Part shown: positions 21,869 to 23,692 of the stretch, piece after piece
How positions within the stretch are numbered: the first letter of the stretch is position 1
Layout: each line of letters begins with the position of its first letter
Source: Chitinophaga pinensis
GTDB lineage: Bacteria > Bacteroidota > Bacteroidia > UKL13-3
Assembly: GCA_945898275.1 (NCBI GenBank)
Contig: CAMDHZ010000002.1
Span: 131,007 to 195,006, forward strand
Direction of reading: 5' to 3'
DNA: 64,000 bases
Notes under the pieces: generated by a model
The model's database searches: none
What the model saw: the letters and a program-made list of their open reading frames with translations, nothing else
Told to the model about the DNA's origin: nothing
Program-made: the position numbers and the translations under genes

Positions 21869-23692
21869 TTGAAAAAAACTTGGTATGTATTCGACTTTGA
21901 CAGTACCTTTACGCAAGTTGAGGCGATGGAAGAGTTGGCAGCCATTAGCTTAGAAAATGACCCAGAGCGGGACATTTTAATAGAAAAAATAAAGCAACTT
22001 ACAGAACTTGCCATGGAAGGCAAAATGCCTTTTGAGAAATCATTAAAGGCAAGGATTGCACTGCTTTCTGCAAAAAAGTATCATTTAAACTTATTGGTGA
22101 ATAGACTTAGGAAGCGCGTAAGCGCTTCATTTGTTAGAAACAAACAGTTTTTCAAAACACACAAAGGAAACGTCTTAATAATTTCTGGAGGTTTTAAGGA
22201 ATTTATTGATCCTATCGTAAAAACGTATCACATTGATGCTGATTGCGTATATGGCAATACATTTATATACGATAAGAAAAACAATATCATTGGGGCAGAT
22301 GAGACCAATTTATTGGCCCAAGCCCAAGGAAAAGTCAAATTACTTAAGCAGCTCAAATTAAGCGGAAACGTAATTATGATTGGAGATGGCTTTACAGATT
22401 TGGAGGTTTTTGAATCGGGTATGGCCAATGAATTTTATGCTTATACCGAAAATGTAAGCCGGCCAAGTGTAATTACTAAATCTGGAAAAGTGGCGCCAAG
22501 TTTAGATGAAATTCTTTTTAAACAGCATTTACCCATGTCTATTTCTTATCCAAAATCGCGCATTAGTGCTTTATTGGTGGGCAAATTAACTTGGCAAGCT
22601 GAAGTATTTTTTAAAAGAGAAGGTTATCAGGTAGAGAAGTATGATTTGTTATCGCAATTAAAAAGTAGCCCAAAGGGTGGCTCTGTGAATATTGTTTTGT
22701 TTGAACCTGAATTAGATAAAAAGGGTACAGTGAGTTCGTTTATTCTTGAACCTAAAAACAAGGTATTGGCGGCTGGAATTTGGGGCGAGTCGGTTCAAAC
22801 CGAAACCAACCCAAAGTTTGCAAAAGCAGGAATAGGAATTTTTAGCAGCAGTTATGCACATACTCGAAGTGTTGCCGAATTGGCCCTATTATATTTATTA
22901 CAATTTTCGAGGCAAAAGCAACAAGAGTTATTTGGTAAAAAGCTTGGTATTATTGGGTATGGACACAGTGGCTCCTTGTTATCTGTGATGGCAGCTCATT
23001 TGGGTTTGGAGGTTTATTATTATGATATTGACCACAAACCACCTATTGGGAATGCTAAGCAAGTTAGAACATTAAGTGATTTATTGCGCAAGTGTGAGTT
23101 GGTAGTAGTGGTTGCGGGCCGTCGATTTATTGGGCAACTAAACATTGGCCCTAAGGAATTGAATTTATTGCCTAAAGAAAGCATTTTAATTCATTTGGGT
23201 TACGATGCTTGTATTGATTTTTTGGCGGTAAAAGACATGCTTAAAACTGGCAGGCTTTCTGGTTTTTATGCAGATGTTTTAGAAGAAAAGAATTTCGCCA
23301 TTTTGAAAGAAAGTGAATCAGTAAAAGTTGGATATAGAGAAAGGTTAATGACACAACAAACGCAGGCAAATATTGCAGCATCGTTAAGCGAATATTTGTT
23401 AGAATATATCAATACTGGCGCCACTAGCGGGAGTTTAAACTTACCCTTAGTTCATTTGCCAAGTATGCATCAGCTGAATAGGTTTATTCATATTCACGAA
23501 AATAAACCAGGGGTTTTGGCTCAAATTAATAATATTTTGGCTACTTATAACATCAATGTGTTGGGTCAATATTTAAAAACCACAGAAACCATAGGATACG
23601 TAATTACTGATGTTAGTAAAGCATATCCACCAAAAGCAATTGAAGATTTAAAAAGAATAGCCGAAACCTTGCGATTTAGAGTTTTGTATTAA
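21869..23692 (+). CDS. HAD-IB phosphatase (SerB-like) fused to a D-3-phosphoglycerate dehydrogenase-like domain and ACT domain
   Basis: N-term VFDFDSTFTQVEAMEELA...IGDGFTDLEVFESGMA; middle HTRSVAELALLYLLQ...LGIIGYGHSG; C-term ACT HIHENKPGVLAQINNILATYNINVLGQYLKT. TTG start. Confidence 0.88.
   Translation: MKKTWYVFDFDSTFTQVEAMEELAAISLENDPERDILIEKIKQLTELAMEGKMPFEKSLKARIALLSAKKYHLNLLVNRLRKRVSASFVRNKQFFKTHKGNVLIISGGFKEFIDPIVKTYHIDADCVYGNTFIYDKKNNIIGADETNLLAQAQGKVKLLKQLKLSGNVIMIGDGFTDLEVFESGMANEFYAYTENVSRPSVITKSGKVAPSLDEILFKQHLPMSISYPKSRISALLVGKLTWQAEVFFKREGYQVEKYDLLSQLKSSPKGGSVNIVLFEPELDKKGTVSSFILEPKNKVLAAGIWGESVQTETNPKFAKAGIGIFSSSYAHTRSVAELALLYLLQFSRQKQQELFGKKLGIIGYGHSGSLLSVMAAHLGLEVYYYDIDHKPPIGNAKQVRTLSDLLRKCELVVVVAGRRFIGQLNIGPKELNLLPKESILIHLGYDACIDFLAVKDMLKTGRLSGFYADVLEEKNFAILKESESVKVGYRERLMTQQTQANIAASLSEYLLEYINTGATSGSLNLPLVHLPSMHQLNRFIHIHENKPGVLAQINNILATYNINVLGQYLKTTETIGYVITDVSKAYPPKAIEDLKRIAETLRFRVLY

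What the first reader, a model, noticed from the sequence alone, without database searches (positions are those of the whole stretch)
21869..23692. SerB-like phosphatase fused to a PGDH domain that seems catalytically degenerate but keeps an ACT domain
HAD motifs look intact (DFDSTF, ISGGF, GDGFTDLE). In the PGDH part, aligning by eye to E. coli SerA, INASRGTVVD corresponds to IHLGYDACID (catalytic Arg replaced by Tyr) and TPHIGGSTQEAQENI corresponds to GYRERLMTQQTQANI (catalytic His replaced by Arg). The substrate segment (SRT) reads FEP. The serine-sensing ACT domain is well preserved (HIHENKPGVLAQINNILATYNINVLGQYLKT). I believe HAD-PGDH fusions exist in Bacteroidota; the loss of catalytic residues suggests a pseudo-dehydrogenase acting as an allosteric regulator of the phosphatase.
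Basis: partly seen in the sequence, partly recalled or inferred. Interest (0 to 1): 0.75.

Follow-up and report, generated by a model that had tools for sequence, protein, structure and literature searches.

The report
Phosphoserine phosphatase with dead dehydrogenase regulator
A bacterial enzyme for the last step of making serine carries, fused to it, a broken copy of the first-step enzyme whose serine sensor is still perfect; relatives show this breakage happened several times and sometimes ended in the broken part being cut out, leaving the sensor on the phosphatase.

Summary
Window 21869-23692 (+) encodes a 607-aa HAD phosphatase-PGDH-ACT fusion. All HAD/SerB catalytic and substrate residues are intact. 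In the PGDH part R60, R62, K141, R240, E269 and H292 (E. coli numbering) are all lost, and the loop 126-147 is deleted. The three serine-binding ACT residues (H344, N346, N364) are kept. R240 and H292 are lost in all 20 fusions of its taxonomic family. The genome has a separate intact serA beside serC, and that SerA has no ACT domain.

Across the class, intact ~630-aa fusions are common. Dehydrogenase loss arose about four times on the tree (three solidly): degenerate in the window's family and in f40, incipient in f23, NAD domain excised in f13 and in the window family's sister clade. Every lost lineage keeps the phosphatase and the serine site. 42 of 44 loss genomes, versus 20 of 44 intact-fusion genomes, have a separate SerA. 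The PGDH part evolves fast but under purifying selection.

Best reading: a phosphoserine phosphatase whose C-terminal pseudo-PGDH/ACT is a serine-feedback module. Catalytic death of the PGDH part is near certain; regulation of the phosphatase is inferred and untested.

The parts
21869..23692 (+). SerB-pseudoSerA-ACT fusion, 607 aa, TTG start
21869..22522 (+). HAD-IB phosphatase domain (residues 1-218), SerB-like, catalytic and substrate residues D9, D11, T13, E18, R62, S106, K155, D173, D177 intact
   Evidence: TIGR01488 over cut-off; TIGR00338 82.5 bits; human and M. jannaschii PSP
22523..22858 (+). PGDH substrate-binding domain, first half (residues 219-330); R60/S61/R62 equivalents E279/P280/K285 lost
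22859..23362 (+). PGDH nucleotide-binding domain (residues 331-498); GxGxxG and D181 kept, loop 126-147 deleted, R240->Y445, E269->K474, H292->R490
   Evidence: (PF02826)
23363..23464 (+). PGDH substrate-binding domain, C-terminal helix and hinge (residues 499-532), largely retained even in relatives that excised the NAD domain
23465..23689 (+). ACT domain (residues 533-607) with serine-binding H543, N545, N563 intact
   Evidence: (PF22629)
23201..23203 (+). codon of Y445 at the position of catalytic Arg240
23336..23338 (+). codon of R490 at the position of catalytic His292

Best explanation
This is a phosphoserine phosphatase (last step of serine synthesis) descended from a bifunctional SerB-SerA fusion. 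Its PGDH part is catalytically dead (shown by sequence) and is kept as the arm that carries the serine-binding ACT domain. The pathway's first step is done by a separate serC-linked SerA that has no ACT domain. Inferred mechanism: serine binds at an ACT-ACT interface as in E. coli SerA; the SBD-ACT unit, which rotates on serine binding in SerA, now moves or re-associates against the phosphatase domains and lowers phosphatase activity. Serine feedback would thus sit on the last, irreversible step instead of the first. In the sister clade the dead NAD domain has been removed, leaving phosphatase-SBD-ACT.
For: PGDH residues R60, K141, R240 and H292 are 0/20 in the family, while H344/N346/N364 are 20/20 and all HAD residues are intact. 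A separate intact serC-serA pair is present (L002; 19 of 20 carriers). The own genome has no other ACT-bearing PGDH among its strong PF02826 hits and only one other HAD-IB gene, in what looks like a polysaccharide cluster. Tree: four changes between intact and lost, each lost lineage keeping HAD and the serine site; single-origin groupings of the window+excised clade with f40 or with f13 are rejected, AU p 8e-5 and 0.008. Excised proteins lack about SerA residues 112-304, i.e. the NAD domain inserted in the SBD, and rejoin at the SBD helix plus ACT. Median pairwise identity in the family: HAD 0.71, SBD 0.38, NBD 0.44, ACT 0.64; in intact fusions 0.52, 0.65, 0.67, 0.61. dN/dS of the PGDH part is about 0.03-0.20, higher than 0.01-0.03 in intact fusions but well under 1. 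SerA serine site and SBD-ACT rotation: PMC6300728. ACT-bearing SerB regulated by serine in mycobacteria: PMC10564941.
Against: No biochemistry exists, and no structural model was good enough to show contact between the HAD and PGDH/ACT parts. 47 of 68 genomes of the taxonomic family have no match to the fusion yet almost all keep serA and serC, so the fusion is not essential there. One carrier, G039, seems to lack both serA and serC. The HAD domain is below NCBI's SerB cut-off (82.5 vs 144 bits), so phosphoserine as substrate is inferred.
Confidence: 0.62

Rival explanations
1. Decaying passenger: once a second SerA was present the PGDH part became free to degenerate; it persists only because it must fold and because ACT dimerises the phosphatase. 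There is no serine regulation.
For: Fast evolution of the SBD and NBD, excision in sister and other lineages, and whole-gene loss in many family members (remnant in G054).
Against: The serine-contacting H, N, N are invariant in every degenerate and excised protein, more than dimerisation alone needs; dN/dS of the PGDH part stays well below 1.
Confidence: 0.2
2. Re-purposed site: the old active-site cleft binds a new ligand (NAD(H) or a pathway metabolite), so the protein senses redox or substrate as well as serine, or has a new activity.
For: GxGxxG and D181 kept; new near-invariant residues at or near old active-site positions: R at G294 (94%), D at G241 (88%), Y at R240 (75%), G at E17 (100%), W at F82 (100%).
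Against: The catalytic and phosphate-binding residues are gone, and relatives do without the NAD domain altogether.
Confidence: 0.12
3. Trans-acting subunit: the pseudo-PGDH part pairs with the separate ACT-less SerA and gives it serine feedback.
For: SerA (L002, 322 aa) lacks ACT; PGDHs dimerise through the NAD domain (PMC6300728), which the window protein keeps.
Against: The genes are unlinked, and the excised relatives lack the dimerising NAD domain while also coexisting with separate SerA.
Confidence: 0.04
4. The PGDH part is still a working dehydrogenase with altered catalytic residues.
For: The Rossmann motif is intact; some type 3 PGDHs use Lys instead of His (PMC6300728).
Against: R60, R62, K141, R240, E269 and H292 are all lost in the window protein (R62 to Lys, a mild change also seen in intact fusions), and the score is 241 bits against NCBI's PGDH cut-off of 404, while the intact fusion L034 scores 641.
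Confidence: 0.02

Closest known systems
Intact SerB-SerA (HAD-PGDH-ACT) fusions of the same class, e.g. L034 (634 aa)
   Same: Same domain order, alignable end to end at about 39-45% identity, same ACT site
   Different: They keep R240/E269/H292/R60/K141; in 24 of 44 genomes sampled they have no L002-type separate SerA beside them
E. coli SerA (type II PGDH, NF008759)
   Same: SBD-NBD-ACT architecture, serine site H344/N346/N364
   Different: All catalytic residues lost here; a phosphatase is fused at the N-terminus
ACT-containing phosphoserine phosphatases such as mycobacterial SerB2 (PMC10564941)
   Same: Phosphoserine phosphatase of HAD type with ACT domains; serine regulates oligomer and activity
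   Different: There two ACT domains precede the phosphatase; here one PGDH-type ACT follows through a pseudo-PGDH
Excised HAD-SBD-ACT proteins of a clade that includes Anseongella (L085, L033) and of f13 (L101)
   Same: Same phosphatase and ACT; the first clade is sister to the window family on the tree
   Different: The NAD-binding domain is removed completely, about 430 aa

Membership tests
Phosphoglycerate dehydrogenase (type II, serine-regulated) | Catalytic R240, E269, H292 and phosphate-binding R60/K141 | tested here: not met
Phosphoglycerate dehydrogenase (type II, serine-regulated) | Score over curated cut-off of NF008759 (404 bits) | tested here: not met
   241 bits; the intact fusion L034 reaches 641
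Phosphoglycerate dehydrogenase (type II, serine-regulated) | ACT domain with H344, N346, N364 | tested here: met
SerB phosphoserine phosphatase (HAD-IB) | HAD-IB motifs DxDST, SGG, K, GDGxxD and substrate residues E/R | tested here: met
SerB phosphoserine phosphatase (HAD-IB) | Over curated TIGR00338 cut-off | tested here: not met
   82.5 vs 144.15 bits; intact and excised relatives also fall below, so it is described as SerB-like
SerB phosphoserine phosphatase (HAD-IB) | Hydrolyses phosphoserine | not testable with these tools
   needs an assay
Pseudoenzyme with regulatory role | Catalytic residues lost family-wide while the fold and gene stay under purifying selection | tested here: met
Pseudoenzyme with regulatory role | Modulates the partner enzyme | not testable with these tools
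   needs kinetics with and without L-serine

The most novel reading that the evidence does not exclude
Feedback control of serine synthesis has moved from the first enzyme (SerA) to the last (SerB) by repeated, independent conversion of a bifunctional enzyme into a pseudo-dehydrogenase regulator, with an evolutionary series (intact, incipient loss, dead, NAD domain excised) alive in one bacterial class; in the window's family the dead cleft also gained new conserved residues and may sense a second ligand such as NAD(H).
Probability: 0.2. Interest if true: 0.75.

Novelty: new variant of a known kind. Interest (0 to 1): 0.6.

Why it matters
It gives a natural series from a two-step bifunctional enzyme to a pseudoenzyme regulator and on to clean domain excision, with several independent repeats. 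That makes the question of how regulatory domains arise from dead enzymes directly testable. It also corrects annotation: automated pipelines could call these proteins phosphoglycerate dehydrogenases although they cannot catalyse that step, and it predicts that the serine feedback point has moved to the phosphatase.

Tried and rejected
AlphaFold on six sequences gave pLDDT 52.7 (full length) and 67.2 (PGDH+ACT). Foldseek ranks E. coli SerA first (E 1.3e-27), but the domain pose is unreliable (TM 0.39), so no structural placement of residues is claimed. The 'sequencing error or pseudogene' idea was rejected: 19 other family members carry the same losses in open frames, dN/dS is below 1, and synteny behind the LysM and secreted-protein genes is conserved. 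A single origin of all losses was rejected for f40 and f13 versus the window clade, but f40 with f13 as one clade is not rejected (p 0.26), so the number of independent losses may be three rather than four. A first active-site table used a numbering off by one and was replaced. Literature searches found no description of this fusion or its degenerate forms in the held open-access library; this is not proof of absence elsewhere.

Full report
What is there. Window 21869-23692 (+) is one open frame of 607 aa. Pfam finds HAD, 2-Hacid_dh_C and ACT. NCBIfam finds HAD-IB over cut-off, SerB below cut-off (82.5 of 144 bits), and the serine-regulated PGDH model over residues 224-607 at 241 bits against a cut-off of 404. 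E. coli SerA is the best solved relative of the C-terminal part (E about 1e-48). Bacterial, human and archaeal phosphoserine phosphatases are the best solved relatives of the N-terminal part.

Active sites. Numbering is by E. coli SerA (locus L117) and its published functional residues (PMC6300728: R60 and K141 for phosphate, R240 for carboxylate, H292 proton donor, H344/N346/N364 for serine). E269 as an active-site residue is from the finding and general knowledge. In the window protein R60->E, R62->K, R240->Y, E269->K and H292->R, and the loop 126-147 with K141 is missing; H344, N346 and N364 are kept. HAD residues are all kept, including SerB's substrate-binding Glu and Arg (the role of these two is from knowledge of phosphoserine phosphatases).

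Not a local accident. Of 68 genomes of the same taxonomic family, 21 match, among them one short remnant and one truncated protein; 20 proteins were analysed. None has R240 or H292; all have the three serine residues. The gene sits behind the same LysM and secreted-protein genes in nearly all of them. Identity within this family is 0.71 for HAD, 0.38 and 0.44 for the two PGDH domains and 0.64 for ACT, whereas in intact fusions the PGDH part is the better conserved (0.65, 0.67 vs HAD 0.52). dN/dS of the PGDH part, where dS is not infinite, is about 0.03-0.20 against 0.01-0.03 in intact fusions: relaxed but still purifying (several pairs are near saturation, so these are rough).

The wider family. 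A class-wide sample of 396 genomes and fetched loci show four forms: intact ~630-aa fusions; degenerate full-length proteins (window family f1; f40); one incipient case in f23 (L035: R60G, R62E, R240G but E269 and H292 kept); and ~430-aa proteins in which the NAD domain is gone (f38, one f34 genome, Anseongella L033; and f13 L101, repeated in two more genomes of that genus). In L085 about SerA residues 112-304 are missing and the chain rejoins at the last SBD helix and ACT. The NAD domain is an insertion in the substrate-binding domain (established knowledge of this fold), so this is a clean domain removal.

Tree. HAD+ACT columns only (no PGDH columns): intact versus lost needs four changes; the window family and the main excised clade are sisters (97/87, starred). 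Putting f40 or f13 with that clade is rejected (p 8e-5, 0.008), but f40+f13 together is not. Three independent losses (window+excised clade, f40/f13, f23) are the conservative count; four is the most parsimonious on the tree. Direction (loss, not gain) follows because the intact residues match E. coli SerA.

Why loss was possible. The window's genome has a separate SerA (L002, 322 aa, no ACT, R/E/H intact) directly behind serC. With a threshold at E 1e-60, 42 of 44 genomes with a lost or partly lost PGDH have such a SerA, against 20 of 44 with an intact fusion; no loss was seen in the 24 genomes without it other than the two exceptions below (Fisher 2e-7, but genomes within families are not independent). 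The two exceptions are G400, which has a more distant dehydrogenase next to serC, and G039, which seems to lack serA and serC.

Reading. Shown: PGDH catalytic residues are lost, phosphatase residues and serine site are kept, the separate SerA lacks ACT, and losses recurred. Inferred: the phosphatase acts on phosphoserine; serine binds the ACT domain; binding changes phosphatase activity. Serine control of an ACT-bearing SerB is known in mycobacteria (PMC10564941), so the proposed function has precedent, with a different architecture.

Limits. Structure prediction was too weak to test geometry. Most members of the taxonomic family lack the fusion and any clear HAD-IB gene yet keep serA and serC, so they must use some other phosphatase. 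The library searched for papers is open-access only.

Noticed in passing
Family f1 genomes such as G004, G012, G013: Many relatives keep serA and serC but have neither the fusion nor any clear HAD-IB phosphatase; their phosphoserine phosphatase is unknown.
   Followed up: partly
L027:1525-1761 (-): Remnant of the fusion gene (78 aa) at the conserved place in G054, next to a murB-like gene: most of the gene has been deleted although serA and serC remain.
   Followed up: yes
L024 (G039): A genome estimated 98% complete keeps the degenerate fusion but has no detectable serC or serC-linked serA.
   Followed up: no
L035:1498-3393 (-): Incipient loss: R60G, R62E, G85E, R240G while E269 and H292 remain; a possible early stage of the same process.
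   Followed up: partly
window 23201-23206 and 23342-23344: New near-invariant residues at old active-site positions in the degenerate family (Y445-D446, R492) suggest a new constraint on the dead cleft.
   Followed up: partly
L120:1411-2073 (-): The genome's only other HAD-IB gene lies between an aminotransferase-like gene and what looks like an ATP-grasp gene, probably a surface-polysaccharide cluster.
   Followed up: no
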